From a virus: a stretch of DNA of 33,154 nucleotides. A model generated the notes under the pieces. It saw nothing but the letters and a program-made list of their open reading frames with translations. It was not told where the DNA came from and did no database searches. Made by a program: the position numbers and the translations under genes. Below, piece by piece: positions 1,295-19,736 of this stretch (positions are counted from its first letter, which is position 1; each line of letters begins with the position of its first letter). The DNA lies in the IMG/VR virus record IMGVR_UViG_3300023116_000179, positions 1 through 33,154 of that record. The stretch is one strand, 5' to 3'.

Positions 1295-1297
1295 AGT

Positions 1298-1675
1298 CTA
1301 TTCTCCTGCCCACTTACGATAAGGTGTAGCTGGTGCATCTACAGTAGGTAGTGCAGACAACTCATCATCTGTTAAATTAGCAATCAGATTAGCGTGATAA
1401 CCATCTAATGCTGTCATCTCTGGATATTCCATACCTTCATCATCTGTTAGCATATTACCAGTTTCTGTGTAGATTGTGCCTATCATATCTATTGCTGTGC
1501 CAGTAAATCTCCAGTCATAAGCACCAGTCATTTCCCATTCAGCATCTAGTTCTAAGTCATCTGGTCTGATGTTATTCTCATCTTCCATATCGTAGTCTTT
1601 AGTTGCTAAGTTAATTGATTCTAATGCTTCCCATAGTGAGGATTCATCAGTTGCTTTTAAATATATGTTACTCAT
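1298..1675 (-). CDS. Acidic tail-module protein, possible fibre chaperone
   Basis: Encodes 125 residues and is strongly acidic. It contains 'DEGMEYPEMTALDGYHANLIANL' and ends 'VDAPATPYRKWAGE'. This central plus C-terminal signature recurs in small proteins next to tail fibre genes of many phages. Such acidic proteins directly downstream of a fibre are often assembly chaperones or short tail components, but no function is established for this one. It starts two bases after the fibre gene stop, so the two genes are almost certainly co-translated. No transmembrane segment or signal peptide is visible. Confidence 0.65.
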   Translation of the reverse strand: MSNIYLKATDESSLWEALESINLATKDYDMEDENNIRPDDLELDAEWEMTGAYDWRFTGTAIDMIGTIYTETGNMLTDDEGMEYPEMTALDGYHANLIANLTDDELSALPTVDAPATPYRKWAGE

Positions 1676-1677
1676 AA

Positions 1678-4398: not shown

Positions 4399-4410
4399 AA
4401 TCTATTCCTG

Positions 4411-4485
4411 TTATGGATTTCTTAAACGCCTACGCATAGCAAGAACTGCTAGTGCTAGTCTCTTCTTTTTGCTTAGTTTTGCCAT
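4411..4485 (-). CDS. Possible 24-residue basic peptide
   Basis: The peptide begins MAKLSKKKRLALAVLAMRRR and ends LRNP. It starts at an ATG at 4485 behind a GAGGG ribosome binding site (GATGAGGGAATATG on the - strand) and stops 13 bases before the fibre start. It lies between the capsid-distal hairpin and the fibre gene. The composition is strongly basic (Lys/Arg clusters at both ends) around a short Leu/Ala helix. Its function is unknown. Its size makes chance possible, but the good ribosome binding site and the tight fit in an otherwise empty gap favour a real gene. Confidence 0.45.
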   Translation of the reverse strand: MAKLSKKKRLALAVLAMRRRLRNP

Positions 4486-4513
4486 ATTCCCTCATCTCCG
4501 CTTAACTTAATGA

Positions 4514-4539
4514 GTGACTCTCCACTGAGGAAGAGCCAC
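4514..4539 (-). terminator. Hairpin just after the capsid gene, possible attenuator
   Basis: On the - strand, GTGGCTCT (4539-4532) can pair with AGAGTCAC (4521-4514) as an 8-bp stem with one G-U pair and a 10-base loop. It begins 10 bases past the capsid stop. The downstream bases (TCATTAAGTT) hold only a weak U-rich run, so it may be a partial terminator or an RNA processing/stability hairpin. T7 has its main terminator in the same place, directly after the capsid gene. The comparison is one of position only. Confidence 0.4.
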
Positions 4540-4548
4540 GGGGTTAAA

Positions 4549-5379
4549 TTAAGAAGATAATTCTTGAATTGAACCTGGACGAGTAACCTTAACGCCATAC
4601 ACTGTATCAGCAGTGAATAGGTCAGCAAGTTTCTCTTGTTTGTACTGAGTTTGAGTACGAACTGCTTGTTGTGTAGCAAGTACAACAGCGTCTTTCTGGA
4701 ATAAGAAAGCTTTCTCTGTAGCACCAGTACCAACTTGAGTTGACATATAAACATCAACACCATAGATTGTACCAATCTTACCAGTTCTGATTGCAGAACC
4801 ATCACCGATGAACTGTTGCTCAGTAAATCTGTCAGTAGACATAAGAGCAGTCATACAAGATGGAGTTACAACTAGAGCTCTGTCGTTAACTGGAACATCG
4901 TTATCATTTAGTGCTTCGATACCTTGTAGGATTGAAGTATCCCAGTTAGTAACTGAACCGATAACAGCATTACCACCAGTTAGTGCAGAAGCACCATCTA
5001 GAGATGTGATGATTGAAGAATCTACTTGCTTAGCTAGTGCATAACCAGCGTCGTCAGTGTAGAAACGTCTCATTGAATTAAGTGCTTGTAACTCAGCGAT
5101 ATCTTCGATATACATTGACCACTCATAATGTTGGTCAATAGCCACTGAGATATCAGCCGCTGTATCTGTGATTGCAGTTACATCTGAATCAGCAACTTTA
5201 GCTGAAGCAGCACTTCTACCAGGATTAGGAATGTGAATAGTATCACCTTTCTTACCTTGGTGGTTTAAGTTCTTGACGAGGTTTGCTACTACTAGATTAG
5301 CTTTGTAAGTAGCGATGACTTCGTCAGACCAAATTTCTGGGATAAATACCGCAGAAGTAGTCGTAGTCATATTAGCCAT
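4549..5379 (-). CDS. Major capsid protein
   Basis: Encodes 276 residues. It starts 'MANMTTTTSAVFIPEIWSDEV' and contains 'GKKGDTIHIPNPGR', 'IDQHYEWSMYIEDIAELQA', 'ALVVTPSCMTALMSTDRF', 'GKIGTIYGVDVYMSTQV' and a C-terminal 'YGVKVTRPGSIQELSS'. These are the expected P-domain, A-domain and E-loop-like elements of HK97-fold capsid proteins of T7-like and marine podoviruses. It is shorter than the T7 capsid protein and has no obvious added domain. It follows the scaffold gene by 31 bases with a strong AAGGAG ribosome binding site (GTTATGATTTATATAG/ACAAGGAGTAAATA region) and precedes a hairpin, as expected for a highly expressed gene. No cleaved propeptide is apparent. Confidence 0.9.
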   Translation of the reverse strand: MANMTTTTSAVFIPEIWSDEVIATYKANLVVANLVKNLNHQGKKGDTIHIPNPGRSAASAKVADSDVTAITDTAADISVAIDQHYEWSMYIEDIAELQALNSMRRFYTDDAGYALAKQVDSSIITSLDGASALTGGNAVIGSVTNWDTSILQGIEALNDNDVPVNDRALVVTPSCMTALMSTDRFTEQQFIGDGSAIRTGKIGTIYGVDVYMSTQVGTGATEKAFLFQKDAVVLATQQAVRTQTQYKQEKLADLFTADTVYGVKVTRPGSIQELSS

Positions 5380-5410
5380 TTATTTACTCCTTGTTATGAT
5401 TTATATAGCT

Positions 5411-6271
5411 TTATTTAACTCTACCCTCTGCATATGCTTTGAAAATTTCACCTTCCATAGATTCATACTTCTGAGGGTCTGTCATTTTTAAGCGAATTAA
5501 GTCTGCACGTCTGTACGTCTTTCCTCCGCCTGTCGCTGAACCTGTAGAAGTTCTTGATTCTGCTTTACCAGCTTTTAATGCTGCTTGTCTTTCAGCTTCT
5601 GCTTGTTCATTTACTTCTTGCGTCTTATTAATCATTGACCTATCTTTCCAGTTAGTCAATAACTCATTAGCTGCATCGTAATTGTAAGCATCCGCCGCTT
5701 GGAACAACTGCATACGAATCGGACTTCCTTTAACCCACTCTTGAAAACCAGAATCTTTTACGATGTCTGTGTAATCAGGGTGTACTGTCTCCAGTTGTGT
5801 CTTCGCACTAGCCTGAGCCTGTTGTGCTTGAAAACGCTGAAATTCTTGAAATTTAGGGTGGTTTTCGATAGCCTTGTTAATCGCTAAATCTGGATTATCA
5901 AAGAAATCGACAGGTTCTTCCTTAATTTCATTTGTATCTTGTTGTTTTGGTGTAGATTGTGCTTGTTGAATCTGTGCTTGAAGGAAACTATCTGAAAGTT
6001 TTCTTAACTCTCCAACTTCTTGTGCCTTACGACCCAATTCTTTTTCGAGGTTCTGATAACTCTCTATAATTTCTTCTGTACTCTTACCAGCAAACTTATT
6101 AGGTATTACATTTTCTGTTGAATCTTCAGCTTCAGCTACTATCTGTTCTTCTACTGTATCATCAACAGCAGCTTCAAATGTTTCTACTGCATCGTTTGTT
6201 GTTGGTTCGATTGTTGATTCAGGAATATCTGAACCAGTCGACTCTTCTGCGTCTACTACTATACTTGTCAT
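5411..6271 (-). CDS. Capsid assembly scaffold protein
   Basis: Encodes 286 residues, with a very acidic N-terminal third (MTSIVVDAEESTGSDIPEST and many Asp/Glu). Predicted coiled coil follows from about residue 70 to 160 ('YQNLEKELGRKAQEVGELRKLSDSFLQAQIQQAQ', 'KFQEFQRFQAQQAQASAKTQ'). A basic C-terminus contains 'YRRADLIRLKMTDPQKYESM' and ends 'FKAYAEGRVK'. Acidic N-terminus, helical middle and a basic helix-turn-helix end that touches the capsid is the arrangement of podoviral scaffolds. The position directly before the capsid gene supports this. The motif 'VHPDYTDIVKDSGFQEWVKGSP' is also typical of marine podovirus scaffolds. The start follows GGACGGAGAAAAAT. Confidence 0.85.
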   Translation of the reverse strand: MTSIVVDAEESTGSDIPESTIEPTTNDAVETFEAAVDDTVEEQIVAEAEDSTENVIPNKFAGKSTEEIIESYQNLEKELGRKAQEVGELRKLSDSFLQAQIQQAQSTPKQQDTNEIKEEPVDFFDNPDLAINKAIENHPKFQEFQRFQAQQAQASAKTQLETVHPDYTDIVKDSGFQEWVKGSPIRMQLFQAADAYNYDAANELLTNWKDRSMINKTQEVNEQAEAERQAALKAGKAESRTSTGSATGGGKTYRRADLIRLKMTDPQKYESMEGEIFKAYAEGRVK

Positions 6272-6345
6272 ATTTTTCTCCGTCCTTTATGGATTATGGA
6301 ATTAATAAATGATATTTGACTTTCGTAAAATATCTAATGGCAGAG

Positions 6346-6579
6346 CTACAAATCGAGTTCTTCTGCCGCCTGTTTTGTTACCTCTTCTAAGTTAATAATT
6401 TGTCTTAGAATCGACAACTGACCTCTAGCGAACCAAAGGTCTTTTTCACTTTCCACACTATCTAATTGATTAGTCAAGTCTTCGAGATTCTTTAATTCTT
6501 GAATTAAGTCTCTCCAACCGTCCTGTTCTGTTAAATTTAGTCTATTGTGGTAAAACTGTTTGTCTTCTTGCGTTAGCAT
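6346..6579 (-). CDS. Small conserved virion-module protein between portal and scaffold
   Basis: Encodes 77 residues starting 'MLTQEDKQFYHNRLNLTEQDGWRDLIQEL' and ending 'ILRQIINLEEVTKQAAEELDL'. It is predicted entirely helical and acidic. Small proteins with the pattern 'GWxDLIxEL...LxxxRGQLxIL' sit between portal and scaffold genes in other marine podoviruses, but I know of no assigned role. The ATG lies inside the portal gene (38-base overlap) and has no clear Shine-Dalgarno, suggesting translation by reinitiation or coupling. The 74 bases between this gene's stop and the scaffold start hold nothing recognisable. Confidence 0.7.
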   Translation of the reverse strand: MLTQEDKQFYHNRLNLTEQDGWRDLIQELKNLEDLTNQLDSVESEKDLWFARGQLSILRQIINLEEVTKQAAEELDL

Positions 6580-8482
6580 AATTTAGTGCTGTCTCAGATT
6601 TAAGATGGTCAACTTCAGGTACTGTTCTCATAGTCTCAACTTTAGTGCTTTCTGTATCAGCCTTCATCTTATCTATTTGTGCTAATTCTTTCTGTAACTT
6701 AATTAATCTCTCTTGAATATCTAATTGATTAGGTTGGTCTCCACTAGCACCTGCTTCTTTAGCATTCTTCATCGCTTTAGTCATCTCTTCTTGAGCTTCA
6801 GCTAAAGTCTTCTGAATGTCTGCCTTCATCTGCTCCATCTGTAATTGGTGATGGTACTGTTGCATCTGTTGTGCTTCAGGATTAGGTTGTAGTCCTTCTA
6901 ACAGTGCATTGACAATTTGGTCTCTATTATGGATACTAGAGTTCTGGAAGATTGCTAACAAAAGAATATTGAAAGCTGGAGAATCTTTCGGAACTGACTG
7001 CATCATAGAGACCATCTGTTGCATCTCTAATTCTTTAGCCATAATACCCATAGTAGAGTATGGAATAAACTGATAATCTACAACTGGATATCTCTCGACA
7101 TCAAATTGTATCTTTCTCCATAGTGCCTTATTAATCATAGGTACTAGGAAAGTATTCTGGAAATTCATTAGTGTGCGTTTCTGTCTCTTAATTGATGCTG
7201 ATTGCATCATCGACATACCAGCAGAAGTTGCTCTGTCTGGTACATTAGAGACATCCGCAGCTCCAGTACCCATCTGAATCATAGATTGCAGAAGGTTAAT
7301 TTGTTGCATCGTATTAGGGTCAGTAGAACCTAAATTAAGAGGCATAATAGCTTGTTTAGGGTCACCATTAGTAAGGATAGTCTTACCAGGTCTAACTTCT
7401 AACTTGATACCTCTAGGTAATCTTGTAGCATCTGCAGCTACCATAGGTGTAGTAGTTAGTGCCAAAGAATCAATTCTAGCTCTCATCTCAGCATCTAGTG
7501 CTTTCTGTGAGTTAAAACCTTTCTCACATACTCCTCTACCCCAGAACTTATTAGGTACGATATCGTGTTGGTAAGAGACGAAAGGTCTATCTACCATCAT
7601 AAAAGGATTCTCTTCTGCTCTTAGAACATAAGCGTCATTAGCGATAGTAACTACTGCTTCTACTAACTCATCTTCATCGTACTCGAAATCATCTTCTGTT
7701 TCGTCTTTATTTAAGTATTTAGCAGGTATTTTACCCCAATACTCTGTAATCTTTATCTGGTCACCAGCATCTTGCATAATCTCTGGGTCATAACCGAAGT
7801 CTACTTCATCTACATCTGCAGGTACGTTTACATCTCTATAGACACCATTAGCGATGCCTTCATTTAAGATATAACGAGGTTTATATACTTCGTGGGCGAC
7901 ACCTAGTGCTTCATTGATTGTATTCGCTGCTGGGTCAATTAAGAACTCTTTAGGAGATACTGCTTCTAGTTTGACATCTATAGAAGCATACTCCTCAATC
8001 TGTCTCACAGAAGTCATAGTACCCTCTACAGGTACTGAGACAGGTCTGAATTTACTAGTCTGTTCTACAATTATCTTAGCGATACCAGTACCATAGATAG
8101 CACCATTTAAGAATGTCTCACAGATAGCATCTTTACAACCAGTGTCTTCTAAATCTTCTTGTAGTAAATTACGGACATATTCTACATCTCTCTTATCGTT
8201 GTCCAACATATCATCTTTAATGTCGAACCACTTACCTCTACCGAATGTAGCTTCTTCTAATTCAGCTACTGAAGCTTCTACTGCTTGTTGTAGAGCTGGT
8301 GTAATAATTCTAGACTTCTCAGAAGAACGTACCATATCCTCTGGTTGCCAGAAACCTCTCCAAGTACGATAATAGGCATCCCAATCAGCAAGATAATTAG
8401 TATCTCTGAAATCACGCCAATCGTCTAGTCTGGTCATCAACCAGTTAGATAATGCTTGGTAGTCGTTTTCTTCTTGTGCCAT
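6542..8482 (-). CDS. Portal (head-tail connector) protein
   Basis: Encodes 646 residues. Portal-type features include 'WRGFWQPED', 'FGRGKWFDI', 'NGAIYGTGIAKIIVE', 'VSPKEFLIDPAANTINEALGVAHEV', 'KITEYWG', 'RPFVSYQHDIVPNKFWGRGVCEKGFNSQKALDAEMR' (the stem/wing region) and 'GTGAADVSNVPDRATSAGMSMMQSASIKR'. The C-terminal 140 residues, rich in Gln, Met, Lys and Glu, form a predicted coiled coil ('EMTKAMKNAKEA', 'LIKLQKELAQIDKMKAD'), as in the P22-type portal barrel. The length is larger than the T7 connector (about 536 residues) and closer to marine podovirus portals. It lies just after terL with a 3-base gap, and the next small gene starts within its 3' end. The start follows CAGGATATTAACTT. Confidence 0.9.
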   Translation of the reverse strand: MAQEENDYQALSNWLMTRLDDWRDFRDTNYLADWDAYYRTWRGFWQPEDMVRSSEKSRIITPALQQAVEASVAELEEATFGRGKWFDIKDDMLDNDKRDVEYVRNLLQEDLEDTGCKDAICETFLNGAIYGTGIAKIIVEQTSKFRPVSVPVEGTMTSVRQIEEYASIDVKLEAVSPKEFLIDPAANTINEALGVAHEVYKPRYILNEGIANGVYRDVNVPADVDEVDFGYDPEIMQDAGDQIKITEYWGKIPAKYLNKDETEDDFEYDEDELVEAVVTIANDAYVLRAEENPFMMVDRPFVSYQHDIVPNKFWGRGVCEKGFNSQKALDAEMRARIDSLALTTTPMVAADATRLPRGIKLEVRPGKTILTNGDPKQAIMPLNLGSTDPNTMQQINLLQSMIQMGTGAADVSNVPDRATSAGMSMMQSASIKRQKRTLMNFQNTFLVPMINKALWRKIQFDVERYPVVDYQFIPYSTMGIMAKELEMQQMVSMMQSVPKDSPAFNILLLAIFQNSSIHNRDQIVNALLEGLQPNPEAQQMQQYHHQLQMEQMKADIQKTLAEAQEEMTKAMKNAKEAGASGDQPNQLDIQERLIKLQKELAQIDKMKADTESTKVETMRTVPEVDHLKSETALNYANARRQTVLPQ

Positions 8483-8485
8483 AAG

Positions 8486-9757
8486 TTAATATCCTGCCAT
8501 TTCATCCATTGGTTGCCAATCTTCCTCAAGTTCTATAGTGTGCATAAAGTCTGCTACACTTACCTGGTCGATATATGCCAACGCATCTATAATATCATCG
8601 TGAGTGCCTCTAGTAGGGAACTCTATTAGTTGTGTCTCTAAATCGTCTATATACGACTTATCTGGGTTAAATGTTATCTTACCGTGTTCTAGTCTTCCCT
8701 GTAGAGCCCAAGTAATTCTATCTGCTTTCTTCTTACCACCGTGGGTTACATCTGTAATTGTCACCCAGCGACCGTCTACTCTCATCTGGTCTTCTAGGTA
8801 AGGTAGTATAGCGTTCTTTAACGACCCTGCTTCAATTCCGACAGTAGTTGCTTCATTTTCGATAGCAGCTGTGAGAATCTTTCTTGCAGTTTCTTTGATA
8901 GACCATCTACCGTGGAGGATATTCTTGACCCACCAGTGGTCACCATCAATTTTAACGATTGCAATAGCTGTTTCATCTAGTTTAGAACCTTTTAATCCTC
9001 TTTCCTTCTCTACATTCTCAAAACCTGCTGGGTCGACTGCTATGACATAATTACCTTCTTCAGGTTCTTCATCATCATATTTAATCCAGTCATTCTTAAA
9101 TATACCACCAGTGAATGAGACGAAAGAAGCTTCAAATTCTTGTCTGAATGCCTGAGTCGACATAGTCTCTCTGGCAACTTTTATCTCTTCTGGGTCAATT
9201 AAAGGATTATCTGTAGAATTGAACTGGAATGCCTCCCAATCTTCATTCTTAGGGTCATCTGCTTCCTGCCACAGGTCATAGAAATGATTCTTACCTGCAG
9301 GAGTACCGATGAATAACGCCCCACCTTTAACATCTGCCAGTGTAGGTCTGATGATTTGTTCCCATACTTCTACCTTCATAGAAGCATACTCATCTAGAAC
9401 TACATATGCCAGTCCCACTCCTCGTAGTGTGTCGGGTCTATCTGACCCCTTGAGACTGATTTTTCTGCCATTGACTAAAGTCATAGTAGCAGTATTCTCG
9501 TGTGTCTGTTCTATCAGGTCTGTGCCGTGCAGCAACTCTTTCAGCATATGCCACATAATATCTTTGGCTTGTTGAAAGGTAGGACCGATATAGAAGACAT
9601 CCTTCTTGTCTGATTGTAGTGCCTTAATGATTAACATCCAGGCAGCTAATCTAGACTTACCGAATCTTCTTCCAGCAGACACTACTTTAAATCGTGCCTC
9701 TGAGTTAAAGATTTCTAGCTGTGCTGGATGAAGTTGAACATCCAGTTCTTTAGCCAT
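8486..9757 (-). CDS. terL: Terminase large subunit
   Basis: Encodes 423 residues. The ATPase has Walker A GRRFGKS (residues 29-35) and Walker B 'YVVLDE' near residue 120, followed by 'GGALFIGTPAGKNHFYDLW', the coupling motif region. The C-terminal nuclease has 'YVIAVDPAG' (first acidic ligand), 'TTVGIEAGSLKNAI' (second) and 'HDDIIDALAYIDQ' (third). This is the RNase H-like headful or end-cutting nuclease that pumps DNA into proheads and cuts it. All main motifs look intact and the length is normal. The ATG overlaps the end of the small-subunit gene by 8 bases; AAGAGATAAGTA serves as ribosome binding site. Confidence 0.93.
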   Translation of the reverse strand: MAKELDVQLHPAQLEIFNSEARFKVVSAGRRFGKSRLAAWMLIIKALQSDKKDVFYIGPTFQQAKDIMWHMLKELLHGTDLIEQTHENTATMTLVNGRKISLKGSDRPDTLRGVGLAYVVLDEYASMKVEVWEQIIRPTLADVKGGALFIGTPAGKNHFYDLWQEADDPKNEDWEAFQFNSTDNPLIDPEEIKVARETMSTQAFRQEFEASFVSFTGGIFKNDWIKYDDEEPEEGNYVIAVDPAGFENVEKERGLKGSKLDETAIAIVKIDGDHWWVKNILHGRWSIKETARKILTAAIENEATTVGIEAGSLKNAILPYLEDQMRVDGRWVTITDVTHGGKKKADRITWALQGRLEHGKITFNPDKSYIDDLETQLIEFPTRGTHDDIIDALAYIDQVSVADFMHTIELEEDWQPMDEMAGY

Positions 9758-10160
9758 TACTTATCTCTTTTATTTTATTCTCGACTTGGGCATCTTCAAT
9801 TTCTACTCCCTCGTCATACTCTAATTCTTTCTCTTGTGTGGCTTCTATTACTTTATTTTCTAAGCCACCGATGTTAATGACAACATTACCCTTATCATTA
9901 CCACTCTTGAATTCTACTGCTTTAGTTGTAGGCAATATTCTGTCCATACACATCTTCAAGCAAGTTCTGTCTCCTTCCATTGCCATATCTATTACTTTCT
10001 GGACAATTTCAGGACCTCTATTAGACATCAATTCTCTACTCAGTTCAGTATATTTGTTCACTGAACCTTTAGGACGCCCTGCTGGGTTAAGACAAACACC
10101 TTTCTTTAGTGCTGGGTTTCCTCTTGGTCTCTTTGGCTTATCTTTAGTATCTTTAGTCAT
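9750..10160 (-). CDS. terS: Terminase small subunit
   Basis: Encodes 136 residues. The basic N-terminus with 'PRGNPALKKGVCLNPAGRPKGSVNKYTEL' matches the 'GNPxGRPKGSxN' DNA-binding leader common in phage small terminases and DUF5681-like proteins. A helical region follows ('LSRELMSNRGPEIVQKVIDMAMEGDRTCLKMCMDRILP'), then an acidic C-terminus. It should recognise the packaging site and stimulate TerL, whose gene overlaps it. It is the first gene of the late operon. The ATG at 10160 is preceded directly by CTTAATAGATT, with no Shine-Dalgarno: the last unit of a repeat array occupies the place where the ribosome binding site would be. No better in-frame start is visible. Confidence 0.82.
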   Translation of the reverse strand: MTKDTKDKPKRPRGNPALKKGVCLNPAGRPKGSVNKYTELSRELMSNRGPEIVQKVIDMAMEGDRTCLKMCMDRILPTTKAVEFKSGNDKGNVVINIGGLENKVIEATQEKELEYDEGVEIEDAQVENKIKEISNG

Positions 10161-10290
10161 AATCTATTAAGTTATATCTATTAAGTGATTAGACTATTAA
10201 GATATAAAGCTATTAAGCTATAATACCTTTAAGATAATAATACTATTAAGTGATTATACTATTAAGATATATACACTATTAAGTTAATTA
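10161..10290 (-). repeat. Late-leader array of CTTAATAG (7 exact copies)
   Basis: On the + strand the unit reads CTATTAAG; on the - strand, toward terS, it is CTTAATAG. Exact copies lie at 10164-10171, 10178-10185, 10194-10201, 10210-10217, 10243-10250, 10259-10266 and 10276-10283. A degenerate unit (CCTTTAAG) at 10226-10233 keeps the phase. Starts are 14-17 bases apart, mostly 16 or 17. The array ends 3 bases before the terS start codon and lies downstream of a leftward promoter, so it should be part of the mRNA leader. A matching array stands at 13850-13985. The function is unknown: candidates are operator, RNA-protein recognition array or replication iterons. Confidence 0.85.
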
Positions 10291-10291
10291 T

Positions 10292-10309
10292 CTAAAGATT
10301 AGTCTTTAG
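10292..10309 (-). promoter_or_regulatory. Leader hairpin between late promoter and array
   Basis: CTAAAGA (10292-10298) and TCTTTAG (10303-10309) are perfect inverted arms around a 4-base loop. They would form a 7-bp hairpin in the leftward leader RNA, immediately before the first CTTAATAG unit. A second, weaker inverted repeat, GGTTA (10309-10313)/TAACC (10326-10330), adjoins it. No U-run follows, so a regulatory or stabilising role is more likely than termination. Confidence 0.5.
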
Positions 10310-10354
10310 GTTAACTATAGAGAGATAACCGTTCTCACTTTTGTATTTCTCTTA

Positions 10355-10367
10355 GGTATATTATACC
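10355..10367. promoter_or_regulatory. Palindromic candidate operator over the late -10 box
   Basis: GGTATA-T-TATACC is a perfect dyad covering the leftward TATAAT. A repressor bound here would block the late promoter. The alternative is chance in AT-rich DNA, but the GC-capped arms make this less likely. Confidence 0.4.
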
Positions 10368-10389
10368 AGATTTTTACTTTGATTTTCAA
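10360..10389 (-). promoter_or_regulatory. Leftward (late) extended -10 promoter
   Basis: On the - strand, TTGAAA (10389-10384), an 18-base spacer, then TATAAT (10365-10360) preceded by TGG form a strong sigma70-like promoter with an extended -10. Transcription would start near 10353 and run into terS, leaving a leader of about 190 nt. The -10 box lies inside the perfect 13-base palindrome GGTATATTATACC (10355-10367), a plausible operator. Host RNA polymerase use fits the absence of a phage RNA polymerase. Confidence 0.65.
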
Positions 10390-11766: not shown

Positions 11767-11970
11767 ATGGGTCTAATTAAAAGACAACTAATAGAAGACG
11801 AAGAAAGAGGTCTGTTAGAATTTAACGATTCTAAGGGATATTATGAACCGACTGAACTCGGTAGGTTAGTAGAACTAAAAGAGTTCCTAGAATGGGAAAT
11901 TTCGAGCTCTAAGAGTGAACTTCGTGAAGTAATTAAGAAGATAAATAACTATAAAGGAGTTAGACAATGA
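11767..11970 (+). CDS. 67-residue unknown early protein
   Basis: The protein begins 'MGLIKRQLIEDEERGLLEFNDSKGYYEPTELGRLVELK' and has a helical, charged C-terminus ('SSSKSELREVIKKINNYKGVRQ'). AAGGAG lies 7 bases before the ATG. The first half, with 'GYYEPTELGRLVELKEF', could form a small winged-helix-like or helical domain, but this is a guess. Its TGA overlaps the methyltransferase start (ATGA), so the two are coupled. Confidence 0.72.
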   Translation: MGLIKRQLIEDEERGLLEFNDSKGYYEPTELGRLVELKEFLEWEISSSKSELREVIKKINNYKGVRQ

Positions 11971-12875
11971 ATGTATTAAGTTTATTTGATGGGATGTCTT
12001 GTGGTCAGATTGCACTTAATAGACTAGGAATCGGTATAAATAACTATTATGCTGCCGAGATAGATAAGTATGCAATAGAGATAACACAGAAGAACTATCC
12101 AGACACAATCCAGCTGGGTGATGTCACTAAGTGGCAAGATTGGGATATAGATTGGTCCAGTATAGATTTAGTCAGTGGTGGATTTCCTTGCCAGGCGTGG
12201 TCTATTGCAGGTAAACAACAAGGAGACAGAGACCCGAGAGGAATGTTATTCTGGACTATGTTGGACATCATAAAGAAAGTCAGAGAATCTAATCCAGATG
12301 CCTATTTCTTGATGGAGAATGTCAAGATGAAGAAAGAATTTGAGGAATACATCACTAGTCATACAGTGGCAGCTCTAGGTAGAGTAGAGAAACACTTAAT
12401 TAATTCATCTTTAGTATCGGCACAGAGTAGACAGAGATATTACTGGACTAATATCCCTAATATTGTGCAACCTGAGAATAAAGGAAAAGTACTAGAAGAC
12501 ATATTGATTAGTAAATATTCGATTCTAGAGGACTTTAGAGTCGAACGTACACCTAACCCTGAGTTACTAAGAAAAACACCGAATTACTGGCAATTTGATA
12601 GGTCTGGTAAAGGATATTCATCTCAACAAGATAGAGTCAGAAGAACAGATGTCCCTAGTAACACACTTTCAGCTGGTCATTCATCTATACCTCAGATATG
12701 GGTTAATTGTCCTCATACGTTCAGAAAACTAACTCCGATAGAGTGTGAACGGTTGCAGACAGTTCCAGACGGATATACTGAGGGAGTATCTAACAGTCAG
12801 AGATATAAGATGTTAGGTAATGGTTGGACTGTAGATGTAATTAAACATATCTATAAGTTTATGGAGTGGAACTAA
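11967..12875 (+). CDS. C5-cytosine DNA methyltransferase
   Basis: Encodes 302 residues. The order of C5 methyltransferase motifs is complete: motif I 'LSLFDGMSCGQIAL' (residues 4-17) binds S-adenosylmethionine, motif IV 'GGFPCQAWS' carries the catalytic Cys75, and motif VI is ENV at 117-119. Motif VIII is 'QSRQRYYW', IX is 'RKLTPIECERLQTVPDGYT' and X is 'MLGNGWTVDVI'. The target-recognition region is short (about residues 170-235), so the recognised site cannot be predicted. In an early phage module it most likely shields phage DNA from host restriction or alters host gene expression. No partner restriction enzyme is seen nearby. Confidence 0.92.
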   Translation: MNVLSLFDGMSCGQIALNRLGIGINNYYAAEIDKYAIEITQKNYPDTIQLGDVTKWQDWDIDWSSIDLVSGGFPCQAWSIAGKQQGDRDPRGMLFWTMLDIIKKVRESNPDAYFLMENVKMKKEFEEYITSHTVAALGRVEKHLINSSLVSAQSRQRYYWTNIPNIVQPENKGKVLEDILISKYSILEDFRVERTPNPELLRKTPNYWQFDRSGKGYSSQQDRVRRTDVPSNTLSAGHSSIPQIWVNCPHTFRKLTPIECERLQTVPDGYTEGVSNSQRYKMLGNGWTVDVIKHIYKFMEWN

Positions 12876-12876
12876 G

Positions 12877-13386
12877 ATGAATATATTTTATTTAGACAAG
12901 AACCCTAGGAAGGCAGCAGAGATGATGTGTGATAAACATATCGTTAAGATGATTCTAGAGACAGGACAGATTCTATCCACTGTACATAGAGAGTACGGTA
13001 ATGATGATGAAGGATTATATAAGGCAACACATAAACACCACCCATCGACTAAATGGGCAGGTAAGAACTGGTTGACTTATGATTGGACATATCAGCACTT
13101 CGTTGCACTAAACGATGAATACTGGTTTCGATACGGTAAGGACCATCTAACCTTCAAGAAACTTAATGACTTAGTCTGGAGGTGTCCTGAAGGAATGACT
13201 ATGGGTGTATTTGAAGAGCCACCACAGGCAATGCCAGATGAGTGCAAAGTAGACGGAGACTCTGTGGCTGCCTATAGACATTACTATATGACCCATAAGA
13301 GAGACTTCGCCAAGTGGACTAGAAGAAATAAACCTAAATGGTTTATGTCCAATGAAGAATTAAGTGAGTGTAACTTCTATGTTTAG
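12877..13386 (+). CDS. Conserved phage protein of unknown function (CDKHxVKM family)
   Basis: Encodes 169 residues with a distinctive start, 'MNIFYLDKNPRKAAEMMCDKHIVKMILETGQIL', then 'YKATHKHHPSTKWAG' and 'YRHYYMTHKRDFAKWTRRNKPKWF'. Proteins with this N-terminal signature are widespread in tailed phages of marine and soil bacteria. Some carry a tentative pyrimidine-dimer glycosylase label, but I cannot confirm that activity here. Invariant-looking His, Asp, Lys and Trp residues suggest an enzyme, perhaps acting on nucleic acid. The gene follows the methyltransferase stop by one base. Confidence 0.75.
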   Translation: MNIFYLDKNPRKAAEMMCDKHIVKMILETGQILSTVHREYGNDDEGLYKATHKHHPSTKWAGKNWLTYDWTYQHFVALNDEYWFRYGKDHLTFKKLNDLVWRCPEGMTMGVFEEPPQAMPDECKVDGDSVAAYRHYYMTHKRDFAKWTRRNKPKWFMSNEELSECNFYV

Positions 13387-13634: not shown

Positions 13635-13841
13635 ATGAATACAATAATAAATGAACAACAAGAAGATAACTGGTTGAAACAGCTAAGGAATGACTTGATG
13701 AGAACTAATAAGTTAATCAAGAAGACCAGAATAGATATAGATGAGGGTATCAAACAGTTAAAATTATTAGAACAAGAGAGGAAAAGATTAGTTAATGAAA
13801 CTTTGAAAATAGATGAATTTGATGAAGTGGATGTGTTATAA
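13635..13841 (+). CDS. Small coiled-coil protein
   Basis: Encodes 68 residues (MNTIINEQQEDNWLKQLRND...) that are almost wholly helical with Leu/Ile heptads ('LMRTNKLIKKTRIDIDEGIKQLKLLEQERKRLVNETL') and an acidic tail. AAGGAG lies 10 bases before the ATG. The last bases of the gene form the extended -10 promoter of the replication operon. A coiled-coil dimer could be a regulator or a structural partner; no family was recognised. Confidence 0.68.
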   Translation: MNTIINEQQEDNWLKQLRNDLMRTNKLIKKTRIDIDEGIKQLKLLEQERKRLVNETLKIDEFDEVDVL

Positions 13842-13842
13842 T
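13834..13842 (+). promoter_or_regulatory. Rightward extended -10 promoter of the replication operon
   Basis: TGTTATAAT (TG at 13834, TATAAT at 13837-13842) is an ideal extended -10 element. No good TTGACA is found 16-18 bases upstream, as expected when an extended -10 replaces it or an activator is needed. Transcription would begin near 13849, placing the whole CTTAATAG array in the leader RNA, the same arrangement as at the late promoter. Confidence 0.55.
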
Positions 13843-13849
13843 CTTATAT

Positions 13850-13985
13850 CTTAAGTGTAACTTAATAGATATAACTTAATAGTGTTATTATCTTAATAGT
13901 ATAATATCTTAATAGTATAATCACTTAATAGATTATCACTATCAGTTATAACTTAATAGTGTAACTTAATAGTGTAACTTTAGTA
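13850..13985 (+). repeat. Replication-leader array of CTTAATAG (7 exact copies)
   Basis: Exact copies lie at 13861-13868, 13875-13882, 13892-13899, 13908-13915, 13924-13931, 13952-13959 and 13965-13972. Weaker units are at 13850 (CTTAAGTG), about 13939 (CTATCAG) and 13978. Spacing is mostly 13-17 bases. Positions 13906-13931 are identical over 26 bases to the - strand of 10268-10243 in the late leader, and a 22-base piece (13861-13882) matches 10185-10164. TATAAT lies between units at 13900-13905 and 13916-13921. The arrays are clearly homologous and face their downstream genes in the same way. Confidence 0.85.
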
Positions 13986-13995
13986 TAGAGAATTA

Positions 13996-14038
13996 ATTGG
14001 GTTGTCTTTCTACTAAAGGTTTGTTGTCTTAACCCAAT
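13996..14038 (+). promoter_or_regulatory. Leader stem-loop before the SSB gene
   Basis: ATTGGGTT (13996-14003) and AACCCAAT (14031-14038) are perfect 8-base inverted arms around a 27-base loop. GTTGTCTT occurs twice, at 14001-14008 and 14023-14030. The stem ends two bases before GGAG (14041-14044), the ribosome binding site of the SSB gene, so folding could affect translation starts. No U-run follows, so it is not a standard terminator. Confidence 0.5.
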
Positions 14039-14053
14039 ATGGAGAAAAATGAT

Positions 14054-14476
14054 ATGGTAACTAAAGGTATCGCAAAATATGTTTATTTAGATTCAACTGA
14101 GAAGTTCAAAGGAACTGACACACAGAAGTATACTCTGACAATCGCAGTAGACTCTAAAGAGGCAAAGAAGTTAGAAGAAGCTGGAGTAAAAGTCAAGACC
14201 CTAAAGGATGACGAAGGTAAAGAATACTTAGCTCGTAAGTTCTCTACCAAATACCCACTCAATGATGATATGATTCGTTTATCATCTGGAGAGATTATTG
14301 GTTCTGACTTCGGTTCTGATAGTGTAGTAGAAGTATTATGGAAGGGTGGAGATGAAAACCCAGTCTATGGTACTCCTACTTATCTCACAGCCATTAAAGT
14401 CCTAGAGAGAACTCCAGGATATAAGTCTCAGAAAGCTGAGGCTGGTAATGGTTTCGATGAGTTCTTTCAGGAGTAG
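14054..14476 (+). CDS. Single-stranded DNA-binding protein, T7 gp2.5-like
   Basis: Encodes 140 residues. It is likely an OB-fold protein: 'GIAKYVYLDSTEKFKGTDTQKYTLTIAVD' gives paired strands, and a mixed region with 'EYLARKFSTKYPL' and 'GSDSVVEVLWKGGD' follows. The C-terminus, NGFDEFFQE, is acidic and aromatic, as in phage SSBs whose tails bind polymerase and helicase. It heads the replication operon just before the primase-helicase, as gp2.5 does relative to T7 replication genes. The ATG at 14054 has GGAG 9 bases upstream; the in-frame ATG at 14039 overlaps that site and the stem-loop and was not chosen. Confidence 0.75.
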   Translation: MVTKGIAKYVYLDSTEKFKGTDTQKYTLTIAVDSKEAKKLEEAGVKVKTLKDDEGKEYLARKFSTKYPLNDDMIRLSSGEIIGSDFGSDSVVEVLWKGGDENPVYGTPTYLTAIKVLERTPGYKSQKAEAGNGFDEFFQE

Positions 14477-14481
14477 TACAA

Positions 14482-16149
14482 ATGGGAGACGACATCAATA
14501 GAGTTGTCTCTCGTGAACCTTGCCCTTCTTGTAGAGAGAGGGGTGAGGACACTAAAGGGGACAATAAAGCGTTATATGCTGATGGACACGGATACTGTTT
14601 TTCTTGTAGGACTTACTTTCCATCTGTAGATAACTTACAGCAACACCAACCAATACAACAACAACCAATGCAATATACTAATCCACTAATTGAACCTAGG
14701 GGAACAGTATCAGAAATTAGAGATAGGAAAATAAGTAAATCGATTTGTGAGAAGTATGATGTAAAACTCTCATTCAATCAAGAAGCTGAACCGATAGCTC
14801 ACTACTACCCCTATTATGATAAAGATACTAATGAACTGATAGGTTACAAAGAGAGAAGAATAGACAATAAGACTTTCTCTATAACTGGAACTAATAGAGG
14901 TGCTGGTCTATTCGGGCAGCAGGCATTCAAGGCTGGAGGTAAATACCTAACTATCACCGAGGGAGAGATAGACGCTATGTCAGTCTCTGAGATGTTCGAC
15001 GGTAAGTGGGCAGTAGTCTCAGTTAAGAACGGTGCAACCTCAGCTCATAAAGACATCAAAGAGAATCTAGATTTCGTAGAATCTTTTGAGAATGTAGTAA
15101 TATGTTTCGACCAAGATGAAGCAGGTAAGAAAGCAGTAAAAGACATACAAGACCTAATTAGTCCAGGTAAGTTAAAAATCTGTAAGCTGCCACTAAAAGA
15201 CGCTAACGAGATGTTATTAGCGAATAGAATCAAAGATTTCACTCAGTGTTGGTGGGAGGCTAAGACCTATACTCCAGCTGGTATCATCAAAGGTTCTGAT
15301 ACTTGGGATTACCTACAGAAAGATAAGGACATAAGAACTGTTCTCTATCCTTGGGAAGGACTGAATGAATATACTTATGGTTTTAGACAGAAAGAGTTAG
15401 TTACTATTACATCTGGTTCTGGTATGGGTAAATCTTCTGTGGTAAAGGAACTAGAATCATATATTCTGAACAATACAGATGATTCATTAGCAATCATTCA
15501 TCTAGAAGAGTCAGTCGATAGGTCAGTCAAAGGTCTGATGTCTATCGAGTGTAATCTTCCAATCCATATACCTAAATATGAAGAGATGTTATCAGATGAT
15601 GAGAAACAATCTCTATGGAAGAGAGCTGTAGGTGATAAAGATGTATTCTTCTATGACCACTTCGGCAGTATGTCAGAAGATTCATTACTCAGTGTCATAA
15701 GGACTTTCGCTAAGAGTTATGATTGTAAGTGGATTGTCTTAGACCATCTATCTATCGTTATATCTGAACAAGATGGAATAATGGATGAACGAAAGGCTAT
15801 AGACGCCATAATGACTAAACTGAGAAAGATTGTCCAGGAGACTGGTGTAGGTCTATTCTTGATATCACATCTAAGAAGACCACAAGGTAAGGCACACGAA
15901 GAAGGTGGACAGGTATCACTTTCAGAGTTAAGAGGTTCTGCTGCCATCGCACAGTTAAGTGATATGGTCTTCGGTCTAGAGAGAAATCAACAGGCAGATG
16001 AGGAAGAAGAAAGGAATACTACAACTATTAGAGTAATCAAAAATAGATTCTGTGGTTTAACTGGTAAAGCTTGTCAACTTATGTATAATAAAGACACAGG
16101 TAGATTAAAGGAAATAAAGCAAAATGCAGCAGAAAACAGTTTATTTTGA
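14482..16149 (+). CDS. Primase-helicase, T7 gp4-like
   Basis: Encodes 555 residues, near the length of T7 gp4. The N-terminal zinc-binding domain has C14-x2-C17 and C39-x2-C42. The TOPRIM primase core has 'TITEGEIDA' (Glu160) and 'ICFDQDEAG' (Asp210, Asp212). The C-terminal DnaB-type hexameric helicase has Walker A GSGMGKSS (Lys317) and 'WIVLDHLSIV' (Walker B Asp421), then 'LFLISHLRRP' and 'ELRGSAAIAQLSDMVFGLERN' with the arginine-finger region. It should unwind DNA and make primers for the phage polymerase. The end overlaps the polymerase start by 26 bases. CAGGAG lies 8 bases before the ATG. Confidence 0.93.
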   Translation: MGDDINRVVSREPCPSCRERGEDTKGDNKALYADGHGYCFSCRTYFPSVDNLQQHQPIQQQPMQYTNPLIEPRGTVSEIRDRKISKSICEKYDVKLSFNQEAEPIAHYYPYYDKDTNELIGYKERRIDNKTFSITGTNRGAGLFGQQAFKAGGKYLTITEGEIDAMSVSEMFDGKWAVVSVKNGATSAHKDIKENLDFVESFENVVICFDQDEAGKKAVKDIQDLISPGKLKICKLPLKDANEMLLANRIKDFTQCWWEAKTYTPAGIIKGSDTWDYLQKDKDIRTVLYPWEGLNEYTYGFRQKELVTITSGSGMGKSSVVKELESYILNNTDDSLAIIHLEESVDRSVKGLMSIECNLPIHIPKYEEMLSDDEKQSLWKRAVGDKDVFFYDHFGSMSEDSLLSVIRTFAKSYDCKWIVLDHLSIVISEQDGIMDERKAIDAIMTKLRKIVQETGVGLFLISHLRRPQGKAHEEGGQVSLSELRGSAAIAQLSDMVFGLERNQQADEEEERNTTTIRVIKNRFCGLTGKACQLMYNKDTGRLKEIKQNAAENSLF

Positions 16150-17869
16150 TATTGAGACTGATGGTTTAGATGCAACTAAAATACACTGTATCTGTGCTAT
16201 TAAAGATAATGATAAGACAGTCAATAATTTTATAGGGGATAAATGTTATGAAGATTTCTACAGATGGTTGGTTCTGGAAGATGTACGAGTTCTTGTTGCT
16301 CACAACGGCATTGGCTTTGATATTCCTGTTCTCCGTCTTCTTAGTGGTCACGAGTGGAATTTTATTATACGAGACACTCTCGTCCTATCAAGATTGGTTA
16401 ATCCTTCCTTGGACGGGGGACACTCTCTCAAATCTTGGGGTGAAAGATTAGGAGAATATAAAGATGATTATCAAGGTGGTTGGGAAGAGTTCAGTATGGA
16501 TATGCTGCAATACTGCCAACAAGATGTCAGAGTCTTAAAAGAACTATATCTACACCTAGGAACACAACTAAAAGATTTTACTGAACAATCAGTAGAGTTA
16601 GAACACCGAGTTGCTACTATCATCAAAGAACAAGAAGACACAGGAGTCTTGTTTGATGAAGGTAAGGCAATGTTACTTCTGGCTGAGTTAAAAGAAGAAG
16701 TAGCTCGAATAGAGGACAAAGTCCACGAAAGGTTTTCCCCTCTCCCAACGTGGACACCTCTAAACGAATTAAAGAATCCATATAAGAAAGATGGTTCTCC
16801 TACAGTTGCATATCAGAAACAACTAGACAGAGGAGCTCACTTCAATGAGATGGGTGAATGGGGTTACACTGCCTATCCAGAGTTCAATCTAGGTTCAAGA
16901 CAACAAGTCGCTAGGTATCTGCAGCACTTCGGTTGGAAACCTAAACAATTCACTGAGAAAGGTTCTGTAATCGTAAATGAGAAGGTCCTGGAAGATGTAG
17001 ACATACCAGAGGCTAAGTTAATTTTAGAGTATTTCACCATCACTAAACGTGTTTCTATGGTAAAATCTTGGGTAGAAGCAATAGAAAATGATGGTCGAAT
17101 CCACGGAAGAGTCAATAGTTGTGGTGCAGTAACTGGAAGAATGACTCATTCCAATCCTAATCTGGCACAAGTCCCAGCGATATATTCCCCTTACGGTAAA
17201 GAATGTAGAGAACTATGGATTGCCCCTGAAGGATATAAGTTAGTAGGTGTAGACGCCAGTGGTCTTGAATTAAGAATGTTGGCACACTATATGAATGATA
17301 AAGATTATACTGAGGAGATACTAAATGGAGATATCCACACTGCGAACCAAATGGCTGCAGGACTTCAAACACGAGATTCAGCTAAGACTTTCATCTATGC
17401 CTTCCTCTACGGAGCTGGAGATTCTAAAATCGGAAGTATCGTCGGAGGTAGTGCGAAAGCAGGTTCTGAACTTAAAACAAAGTTCCTTGATAATACGCCA
17501 TCACTTAAGACACTTAGAAGAAGAGTTGACGAACAGAGCAAGAAAGGCTGGATTAGAGGTCTCGATGGACGAAGACTAAATATAAGGTCTGCACACGCAG
17601 CTCTGAATGTCTTACTACAGTCTGCTGGTGCGATAGTTATGAAGAAGGCATTAGTTCTACTTAAAGAATATGCCGATAAACAAAACATAGAATATAGATT
17701 TGTTCTGAATGTACACGACGAATATCAGGTCGAAGTTAAAGAGAGACAAGCAGAACAATTCGGGAGACTTGCAGTTGATTGTATCAGACGTGCAGGTATA
17801 GATTTTAACCTAAACTGTCCTCTGGACGGTGAATATAAGATAGGTGAAACTTGGGCAGAGACACACTAA
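16124..17869 (+). CDS. polA: Family A DNA polymerase with proofreading domain
   Basis: Encodes 581 residues. The 3'-5' exonuclease has 'YFDIETDGL' (Asp9, Glu11), 'VAHNGIGFDIPVL' and 'YCQQDVRVL'. The polymerase has 'GRVNSCGAVTGRMTHSNPNLAQVPA', motif A 'LVGVDASGLELRMLAHYM' (Asp377), motif B/O-helix 'RDSAKTFIYAFLYGAG' (Arg417, Lys421, Tyr425) and motif C 'NVHDEYQVEV' (His531, Asp532). Tyr425 stands where T7 has Tyr526 and E. coli Pol I has Phe762. The protein is about 120 residues shorter than T7 polymerase, and no thioredoxin-binding loop is obvious, so processivity may be obtained differently. AAAGGAAAT precedes the ATG. Confidence 0.94.
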   Translation: MQQKTVYFDIETDGLDATKIHCICAIKDNDKTVNNFIGDKCYEDFYRWLVLEDVRVLVAHNGIGFDIPVLRLLSGHEWNFIIRDTLVLSRLVNPSLDGGHSLKSWGERLGEYKDDYQGGWEEFSMDMLQYCQQDVRVLKELYLHLGTQLKDFTEQSVELEHRVATIIKEQEDTGVLFDEGKAMLLLAELKEEVARIEDKVHERFSPLPTWTPLNELKNPYKKDGSPTVAYQKQLDRGAHFNEMGEWGYTAYPEFNLGSRQQVARYLQHFGWKPKQFTEKGSVIVNEKVLEDVDIPEAKLILEYFTITKRVSMVKSWVEAIENDGRIHGRVNSCGAVTGRMTHSNPNLAQVPAIYSPYGKECRELWIAPEGYKLVGVDASGLELRMLAHYMNDKDYTEEILNGDIHTANQMAAGLQTRDSAKTFIYAFLYGAGDSKIGSIVGGSAKAGSELKTKFLDNTPSLKTLRRRVDEQSKKGWIRGLDGRRLNIRSAHAALNVLLQSAGAIVMKKALVLLKEYADKQNIEYRFVLNVHDEYQVEVKERQAEQFGRLAVDCIRRAGIDFNLNCPLDGEYKIGETWAETH

Positions 17870-18282
17870 GAAAATGTAATACTTGTGGTCTTGAGGCTCA
17901 TACTGAAGAAGATTTGGAACTATTCTCTAAAAATAAATCTTGTATGTATGGAAGAGCTCCTGAATGTTATACTTGCCATAATAAAAGAAAAAATACATAT
18001 AGAAAAAATAACCCAGAGGCTTATAGAGAGTCCAATATGAAATCTTTATGTAAGAATACATATAAAATAACTTTTGAAGAATATAATGAAAGAATGTCAA
18101 CTTCAGATTGTTGTGAGATTTGCGAAAGTAAAGACAATTTAGGTTATGACCATTGTCACGACACTATGAAGTTCAGAGGAATCCTATGCAAGAGTTGTAA
18201 TGCTGCACTAGGAAAATTAGGGGACACTTTAGAAGGTATTATGAAAGTAGTCCGTTATTTAACTAAAAAGGAGAATGTGTAA
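17851..18282 (+). CDS. HNH / recombination endonuclease VII-like nuclease
   Basis: Encodes 143 residues. The N-terminal zinc module has C9-x2-C12 and, about 30 residues on, 'ECYTCHNKRKNTYRKNNPEAY', a basic segment typical of phage HNH proteins. The C-terminal endonuclease VII domain has 'CCEICESKDNLGYDHCHDTMKFRGILCKSCNAALGKLGD', with the DHCH catalytic motif and zinc cysteines. The frame has no early ATG; TTG at 17851, after AGGTGAAAC, is the likely start and overlaps the polymerase by 19 bases. It may resolve branched DNA or be a homing-type insertion between polymerase and exonuclease. Its codons look more AT-rich than its neighbours. Confidence 0.83.
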   Translation: MGRDTLRKCNTCGLEAHTEEDLELFSKNKSCMYGRAPECYTCHNKRKNTYRKNNPEAYRESNMKSLCKNTYKITFEEYNERMSTSDCCEICESKDNLGYDHCHDTMKFRGILCKSCNAALGKLGDTLEGIMKVVRYLTKKENV

Positions 18283-19166
18283 TGAGTATAGATACACTGG
18301 TAGATGATGTCTACAACCTAATGGAAACTAAAGAGATTCCAGATGATGTAAATATCGAAGAGGTTATTAATCAATTCGGTGAGAATGTAAAAGAAATCTT
18401 ACTGAAGAATATTACTAACCATAAAGAAGACAATAGGAAACTAAGAATGTCTAATATAGGTAAACCTGATAGGCAGCTTTGGTATCACTATAATAATACT
18501 GAAGGTGAGAAGTTAAGACCTTCTACATTAATCAAGTTCTTATATGGACATCTAACAGAAGAACTAATCTTGGCATTAGTTAAACTATCTGGACATACAG
18601 TAACTGACGAACAGAAACAAGTAGAGGTAGGAGGAATCCGAGGCTCTATGGACTGTAAGATTGATGGTGTCTTGACTGATGTTAAATCTGCATCTACTTA
18701 TGGATTTAAGAAATTTAAAGATGGTTCACTGATAGATGATGATGCCTTTGGTTATATCGACCAGATTAAAGGTTATGCACACGCTGAAGGTGAAAGACAG
18801 TTCGGTTGGTTAGCATTCGATAAGTCTTTAGGACATCTAACATATCTTAAATACGATATGGATGATGAGAAGTCTAGACATTGGAGTAAATTAAACTTAA
18901 CTAATATCGAAGACAGAATAGACCACATTAAGTTTGTAGTCGAACAGAAACAACCACCAGCTAGATGTTATGATTTAGAACCTGATGGTAAGAGCGGCAA
19001 TATGAAACTTCCAGTAGGATGTGCATACTGTCAATATAAACATACTTGTTATCCTGAATTAAGAACTTTCCTATATTCAACAGGACCTAGATTCTTAGCA
19101 GAGGTAGTTAATGTTCCTAATGTATTAGAGGTAGACAAAGATGGCAATGCCAAAGTTCAGGAGTAA
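18282..19166 (+). CDS. PD-(D/E)XK exonuclease, Cas4/RecB-like with Cys cluster
   Basis: Encodes 294 residues. The nuclease core has 'FLYGHLTEELILAL' (Glu near 94), 'GIRGSMDCKIDGVLTDVKSAS' (Asp124, Asp133, Lys135) and 'YIDQIKGYAHAEG' (the QxxxY motif). The C-terminal 'RCYDLEPDG' and 'LPVGCAYCQYKHTCYPELR' supply cysteines, as in Cas4-like exonucleases that hold an iron-sulphur cluster. Marine podoviruses carry such an enzyme where T7 has its gp6 exonuclease. It likely degrades host DNA or processes recombination ends. TAATG couples it to the HNH gene, and AAGGAG lies 9 bases upstream. Confidence 0.87.
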   Translation: MSIDTLVDDVYNLMETKEIPDDVNIEEVINQFGENVKEILLKNITNHKEDNRKLRMSNIGKPDRQLWYHYNNTEGEKLRPSTLIKFLYGHLTEELILALVKLSGHTVTDEQKQVEVGGIRGSMDCKIDGVLTDVKSASTYGFKKFKDGSLIDDDAFGYIDQIKGYAHAEGERQFGWLAFDKSLGHLTYLKYDMDDEKSRHWSKLNLTNIEDRIDHIKFVVEQKQPPARCYDLEPDGKSGNMKLPVGCAYCQYKHTCYPELRTFLYSTGPRFLAEVVNVPNVLEVDKDGNAKVQE

Positions 19167-19509: not shown

Positions 19510-19736
19510 ATCCAAAACACTATAGGAATCATCCTAGTGGTATAGAGGCAATAGAAGTCACTGAACATATGAACTTTTGTCTCGGTAATGCTATTAAATA
19601 CATTTGGAGAGCTGATTTAAAACATTCAGATAATGGACTGGAAGATTTAAACAAAGCTCTATGGTATATACAGAGGGAAATTACAAGGAGAGAATCAAAT
19701 GACTCTGGAAGAGGTAAAGGAAAAACTGATAGCTAA
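19491..19736 (+). CDS. DUF3310 protein
   Basis: Encodes 81 residues. 'INPKHYRNHPSGIEAIEVTEHMNFCLGNAIKYIWRADLK' and 'DLNKALWYIQREI' are the hallmark of DUF3310, a small helical family found next to phage nucleotide-metabolism genes and sometimes called nucleotide-kinase-like. The biochemical role is not established. The location after endonuclease I and before the RNR genes fits a part in DNA precursor supply. It overlaps the genes on both sides. Confidence 0.85.
   Translation: MDKRAINPKHYRNHPSGIEAIEVTEHMNFCLGNAIKYIWRADLKHSDNGLEDLNKALWYIQREITRRESNDSGRGKGKTDS

What the first reader, a model, noticed from the sequence alone, without database searches (positions are those of the whole stretch)
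10160..10389. The array is transcribed: promoters lie before, not after, both arrays
A TGnTATAAT promoter with TTGAAA at an 18-base spacing reads leftward from 10389-10360, and a TGTTATAAT element reads rightward at 13834-13842. Both stand upstream of their array, so each mRNA would begin with a leader of about 190-205 nt full of CUUAAUAG. This parallel layout suggests antitermination, attenuation, RNA-protein assembly or translation control rather than ordinary upstream activator sites.
Basis: partly seen in the sequence, partly recalled or inferred. Interest (0 to 1): 0.7.

Follow-up and report, generated by a model that had tools for sequence, protein, structure and literature searches.

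The report
Repeat-filled mRNA leaders controlling phage operons
Two main gene blocks of an uncultivated marine phage start with the same kind of long untranslated RNA leader, and the leader of its DNA-binding protein gene ends in a conserved RNA knot pressed against the ribosome-binding site, which suggests that the phage meters this protein at translation, as phage T4 does with an unrelated protein.

Summary
An extended −10 promoter lies upstream of each CTTAATAG array: 10389-10360 (−), TTGAAA-18-TATAAT with TGg before it, and 13834-13842 (+), TGtTATAAT without a good −35. Predicted leaders are 193 and 205 nt, with seven exact copies each. The layout is conserved: TTGMNN-N12..16-TGnTAWAHT precedes ssb in 31 of 41 and terS in 13 of 14 distinct leaders of related marine phages (shuffles 0.15 and 0.05). 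The array is a lineage-specific form of a leader motif, CTWWAG, enriched 8-10-fold in both leaders across the family. In the window it is predicted unstructured, and no data show what reads it. [quoted passage not shown] Between array and ssb lies an H-type pseudoknot (13978-14038) whose last helix ends 2 nt before the Shine-Dalgarno GGAG. It recurs across the family with covariation, is generally absent from terS leaders and has no Rfam match. Best reading: a translational operator for ssb, probably autogenous (T4 gene 32-like by convergence), with the arrays as leader elements shared by both operons. Antitermination is disfavoured. Transcription attenuation and a DNA operator remain open.

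The parts
10360..10389 (-). Promoter of the leftward (terS, head/structural) operon: TTGAAA, 18 nt, TATAAT with TG in the extended position; predicted +1 about 10353
   Evidence: same layout in 13 of 14 relatives' terS regions
10161..10353 (-). Predicted 193-nt 5' leader of the terS transcript
   Evidence: sequence; +1 inferred from the -10
10292..10309 (-). CTAAAG/CTTTAG inverted repeat in the terS leader, upstream of the array
10164..10283 (-). Array 1: seven exact CTTAATAG (starts 17,16,33,16,16,14 apart) plus one degenerate CTTAAAGG at 10227-10234; last copy ends 3 nt before the start codon
9750..10160 (-). First gene of the leftward operon, DUF5681 protein, likely small terminase; no Shine-Dalgarno sequence
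   Evidence: Pfam PF18932 E 3e-8; SD survey
13834..13842 (+). Extended -10 promoter TGtTATAAT of the ssb/replication operon; predicted +1 about 13849
   Evidence: conserved with TTGAC -35 in most relatives
13849..14053 (+). Predicted 205-nt 5' leader of the ssb transcript
   Evidence: sequence; +1 inferred
13861..13972 (+). Array 2: seven exact CTTAATAG (starts 14,17,16,16,28,13 apart), preceded by CTTAAG at 13850
13978..13985 (+). Pseudoknot stem 1, 5' strand CTTTAGTA
   Evidence: its L001 row has the same sequence
13996..14003 (+). Pseudoknot stem 2, 5' strand ATTGGGTT, inside the loop of stem 1
14011..14018 (+). Pseudoknot stem 1, 3' strand TACTAAAG
14031..14038 (+). Pseudoknot stem 2, 3' strand AACCCAAT, ending 2 nt before the Shine-Dalgarno GGAG (14041-14044)
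14054..14476 (+). ssb: single-stranded-DNA-binding protein, OB fold of the T7 gp2.5/DUF2815 kind
   Evidence: AlphaFold model pLDDT 81.6; Foldseek T7 gp2.5 1je5 E 3e-5, DUF2815 4klk, Enc34 SSB 5odl
14482..17869 (+). Downstream replication genes: primase-helicase and family A DNA polymerase

Best explanation
Both arrays are parts of 5' leader RNAs made by host RNA polymerase from sigma-70-type extended -10 promoters, one for the terS/structural operon and one for the ssb/replication operon. They act after transcription initiation, as RNA. In the ssb leader the array runs into an H-type pseudoknot whose second helix abuts the Shine-Dalgarno sequence. When this fold is held closed, ribosome binding at ssb is blocked. 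The most likely effector is the SSB protein itself, an autogenous translational repressor as T4 gp32 is, with the unstructured UUAA-rich repeats upstream serving as landing sites for excess SSB. The terS array, which runs right up to an SD-less start codon, could be read by the same protein. Indicated by sequence and conservation: promoter positions, leaders, shared motif, SSB fold, conserved pseudoknot next to the SD. Inferred: the effector, the direction of control, and any role of the array.
For: Promoter-leader layout conserved in both operons. The motif CTWWAG is enriched in both leaders across the family: CTTAAG 43 against 5.2 in ssb, 34 against 2.5 in terS leaders. Array spacing differs between lineages but alike in both operons: 14 nt throughout in L002, mostly 16-17 in the window, which points to one shared factor. 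The gene product is an SSB. Pseudoknot: 45 of 60 distinct ssb leaders are matched by at most 1 of 60 shuffles; stem 2 ends 1-2 nt before the SD in 31 of 56; a strict Watson-Crick test gives 16 of 35 clusters against 1.9 expected; covariation on a 12-sequence alignment gives 85% of cells paired, 10 pairs with two-sided changes, 0 of 500 shuffles, and slid controls at most 56%. It is also found in 23 of 26 distant relatives with SSBs only about 35% identical, and not in terS leaders except L025. No T7-type RNA polymerase in the window or in four or five longer relatives, with a positive control. T4 precedent: pseudoknot plus UUAAA repeats (PMC535899; PMC3014915).
Against: No binding, footprinting or transcript data. 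In T4 the A/U-rich repeats lie 3' of the pseudoknot and include the SD; here the arrays lie 5' of it. Most relatives have no CTTAATAG array at all, so the array cannot be needed for the pseudoknot to work. The terS leader has an array but no pseudoknot. The leader sequences are related to one another, so shuffle counts are not probabilities. A few ssb leaders (L005, L006, L021, L124) gave no pseudoknot at the SD.
Confidence: 0.4

Rival explanations
1. Transcription attenuation: stem 1 followed by a U-rich loop is an intrinsic terminator in the ssb leader, and pairing of stem 2 or binding of a factor to the upstream leader decides between termination and read-through.
For: 42 of 56 leaders have at least 5 T in the 8 nt after stem 1, and 26 of these also have at least 4 G/C in the stem strand. 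Some leaders, such as L114, have a 12-bp stem followed by eight T.
Against: In the window stem 1 is A/T-rich and is followed by GTTTGTTG; the terminator scan lists nothing in either leader. Stem 2 lies tightly against the SD, which attenuation does not require. The terS leader has no such element.
Confidence: 0.18
2. DNA operators: the repeats are binding sites just downstream of both promoters for one regulator that blocks or modulates initiation or early elongation; the arrays are an expanded form of the dyad seen in relatives.
For: The motif is in both operons' leaders. In many relatives it flanks a 19-nt dyad GATAAYCATWATGRTTATC whose sequence, not only its pairing, is conserved, and similar words occur in some terS leaders. 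The GU against AC test did not favour RNA after redundancy was removed (21 to 10, 109 of 500 re-dealt sets as high).
Against: No regulator gene was recognised in the window. All array copies in the window and in L002 point the same way relative to transcription in both operons. The sites run to +190, far beyond usual operators.
Confidence: 0.22
3. Ribosome standby or translational enhancer: the unstructured A/U-rich arrays bind ribosomal protein S1 and recruit ribosomes, replacing the missing Shine-Dalgarno sequence of terS.
For: terS in the window has no SD while 31 of 39 genes have at least 4 nt. L002, the other array lineage, also lacks one, whereas leaders without arrays have AAGGA or GAGGA. 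The terS array folds no better than shuffles (z +0.34).
Against: ssb has an SD and still has an array. A generic enhancer would not need an exact 8-nt repeat or matched spacing in both operons.
Confidence: 0.15
4. Processive antitermination: the leaders carry nut- or put-like RNA sites that make RNA polymerase ignore terminators in both long operons.
For: Both sites lie directly after the promoters of the two main operons, as nut and put sites do, and terS leaders of some relatives contain a CAACTCTTTA word resembling boxA.
Against: No terminator-like site on the sense strand of 1-10200 and one weak one in 14000-24200; no N- or Q-like protein recognised.
Confidence: 0.05

Closest known systems
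T4/T2/RB69 gene 32 translational operator
   Same: 5' leader of a phage SSB gene with an H-type pseudoknot near the ribosome-binding site and UUAA-containing A/U-rich repeats (PMC535899, PMC3014915)
   Different: SSB is a gp2.5/DUF2815-type OB protein by predicted fold; the repeats lie 5' of the pseudoknot; the pseudoknot abuts the SD instead of lying about 40 nt upstream; a second repeat array heads an unrelated operon; no binding shown
STAXI RNA motif (Rfam RF01728)
   Same: Pseudoknots near SSB and other DNA-handling genes (PMC2864571)
   Different: Tandem pseudoknots in Enterobacteriales; no Rfam match here
lambda nut / HK022 put antitermination sites
   Same: RNA elements directly downstream of the promoters of two main operons
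   Different: No convincing terminators to bypass in the operons, no matching protein, different architecture (from general knowledge; not aligned here)
Mycobacteriophage L5 stoperators
   Same: Short asymmetric repeats oriented with transcription (from general knowledge)
   Different: L5 sites are scattered over the genome and bound by a repressor; here they are confined to two leaders and no repressor was found

Membership tests
T4 gene 32-type autogenous operator | Lies in the 5' leader of a phage SSB gene | tested here: met
   (OB fold, gp2.5 match); leader position
T4 gene 32-type autogenous operator | H-type RNA pseudoknot upstream of the start codon | tested here: met
   computational only:
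T4 gene 32-type autogenous operator | Unstructured UUAAA/UAAA repeats 3' of the pseudoknot, overlapping the ribosome-binding site | tested here: not met
   the repeats lie 5' of the pseudoknot; the pseudoknot ends 2 nt before the SD
T4 gene 32-type autogenous operator | Protein homologous to gp32 | tested here: not met
   best structural matches are T7 gp2.5, DUF2815 and Enc34 SSB; no gp32 in the 50 rows shown
T4 gene 32-type autogenous operator | SSB binds the leader and represses translation | not testable with these tools
   needs binding and reporter assays
Sigma-70-type extended -10 promoter | TGnTATAAT, with or without a -35, at a conserved position before the gene | tested here: met
   transcription start not mapped
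Processive antitermination site (nut/put) | Downstream terminators that need to be bypassed | tested here: not met
   Rho-dependent terminators could not be tested
Known Rfam RNA family | Covariance-model match | tested here: not met
   only chance-level matches or none

The most novel reading that the evidence does not exclude
One RNA-binding phage protein, most likely SSB, reads the same repeats in the leaders of both the replication and the packaging operon, so that the amount of free SSB (hence of exposed phage ssDNA) sets both SSB synthesis and the start of packaging in an RNA-polymerase-less phage family.
Probability: 0.15. Interest if true: 0.85.

Novelty: new variant of a known kind. 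Interest (0 to 1): 0.58.

Why it matters
[quoted passage not shown] A conserved, covarying pseudoknot at the SD of an unrelated SSB gene, in a family with no close cultivated relative in the phage collection searched, would be an independent case and could be tested with cloned leaders and protein alone. It would also bear on how phages without their own RNA polymerase time replication and packaging.

Tried and rejected
Rfam search of the window region and of 13 related loci: no family. Tandem internal promoters: array TATAAT words are not kept in L002. Stable folding of the arrays: window arrays fold no better than shuffles or only weakly so (z +0.34 and -1.5). RNA against DNA by wobble bias: 61 to 20 over all 28 hairpins but 21 to 10 over 10 non-redundant ones, inconclusive. 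A swapped-strand comparison is circular (own stems pair by construction) and is not used as evidence. A first -35 pattern had the wrong spacing and was corrected. CTTAATAG arrays in cellular genomes (92 hits) are scattered over unrelated organisms and were not followed. Arrays in L176, L178, L181, L182 and L187 lie upstream of the terS promoter on the other strand inside a longer tandem repeat and are not counted as leader arrays.

Full report
Setting. The window is a 33,154-base virus record of an uncultivated phage. A leftward operon begins with a DUF5681 protein (likely TerS), terminase and portal; a rightward operon holds ssb, primase-helicase, family A polymerase, nucleases and ribonucleotide reductase (reductase by position and by comparison with annotated HTVC115P). 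In the phage collection the closest polymerases are 48-52% identical, from pelagiphages, the closest terminase is 27%, and ssb has no match. Related contigs come from IMG/VR. No T7-type RNA polymerase was found in the window or in four longer relatives, while the positive control CRP-804 rang.

Observation. The right promoter is an extended -10 without a -35. Consensus counts in this A/T-rich DNA are not above chance, so the case rests on conservation. Across distinct upstream regions the full TGnTATAAT occurs in 14 of 14 terS and 28 of 41 ssb regions against 0.45 and 0.70 in shuffles, and with a -35 in 13 of 14 and 31 of 41 against 0.05 and 0.15.

The array in context. Only the window's close kin and the L002-L004 lineage carry CTTAATAG direct repeats in these leaders. 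Other relatives carry CTTAAG, CTTTAG and CTAAAG in the same leaders, enriched 8-10-fold over shuffles in both operons. In L002 both arrays have a strict 14-nt unit; in the window both are mostly 16-17. In L179 the terS array has lost two units and keeps the rest in register. So copy number and spacing drift, but alike in the two operons, which suggests one shared reader. The window arrays are predicted to be unstructured or nearly so, whereas ssb leaders of relatives are strongly structured on average (mean z -3.1 over 30).

The pseudoknot. Between array 2 and ssb, helix CTTTAGTA/TACTAAAG (13978-13985 with 14011-14018) encloses ATTGGGTT (13996-14003), which pairs with AACCCAAT (14031-14038), 2 nt before the SD GGAG (14041-14044). 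Of 60 distinct ssb leaders, 45 score so high that at most 1 of 60 dinucleotide shuffles matches. Stem 2 ends 1-2 nt before the SD in 31 of 56. A simpler test that fixes only the position next to the SD and demands Watson-Crick pairs finds at least 6 bp in 16 of 35 clusters against 1.9 in shuffles, maximum 7. On a 12-sequence alignment 85% of cells pair, 10 of 19 pairs show changes on both sides, and no shuffle of 500 reaches the covariation score; sliding by one column drops pairing to 49-56%. The element recurs in distant relatives (23 of 26 with at most 3 of 60 shuffles as good) and, as a control in the same genomes, is absent from 13 of 14 terS leaders at the level of at most 1 of 60 shuffles (L025 is the exception). 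The conserved helices and the placement at the SD are what a translational operator would show; the effector is not known.

The protein. The ssb product has no Pfam family, but its AlphaFold model (pLDDT 81.6) matches T7 gp2.5, DUF2815 proteins and Enc34 SSB, and it sits before primase-helicase and polymerase. It is therefore an SSB with good confidence.

Mechanism. The best-supported step is translational control of ssb through the pseudoknot. Autogenous control by SSB is inferred from T4. Differences from T4 (repeat position, protein type, distance to the SD) mean that it is not filed as a gene 32 operator; it would work like one. The role of the arrays is the weakest step. They could be landing sites for SSB or another RNA-binding protein, ribosome standby sites (the terS start has no SD, and neither has L002), or DNA sites. 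Antitermination is disfavoured because the operons show no convincing intrinsic terminators on the sense strand. Attenuation is open, since 42 of 56 leaders have a U-rich stretch after stem 1, though the window's stem is A/T-rich and not scored as a terminator.

Limits. All evidence is from sequence. Shuffle tests ignore relatedness. The window is a fragment and its host is unknown. Transcription starts are inferred.

Noticed in passing
ssb leaders of relatives, e.g. L009 210-228, L109 1893-1911, L130 1731-1749: A dyad GATAAYCATWATGRTTATC just downstream of the promoter matches the E. coli Fur box consensus (recalled) at 14-16 of 19; across the held loci such matches exceed 60 shuffled palindromes (54 against a mean of 4.9 at 15 or more). 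It is not found in the window's leaders and may be a chance likeness of a conserved dyad.
   Followed up: partly
L187 6228-6357 and 6480-6650: Tandem repeats with CTTAATAG words on the strand opposite to terS, next to several TTATCCACA words resembling DnaA boxes; possibly a replication origin region.
   Followed up: no
terS leaders of L007, L025, L028, L079: Conserved AAGAGCCT...AGACAACTCTT hairpin word near the 5' end, with a boxA-like CAACTCTTTA.
   Followed up: no
window 9750-10160 (-): The first gene of the leftward operon has no Shine-Dalgarno sequence although most genes of the window do.
   Followed up: partly
window 11967-12875 and 12877-13386 (+): C5-cytosine methyltransferase and pyrimidine-dimer glycosylase genes upstream of ssb.
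   Followed up: no
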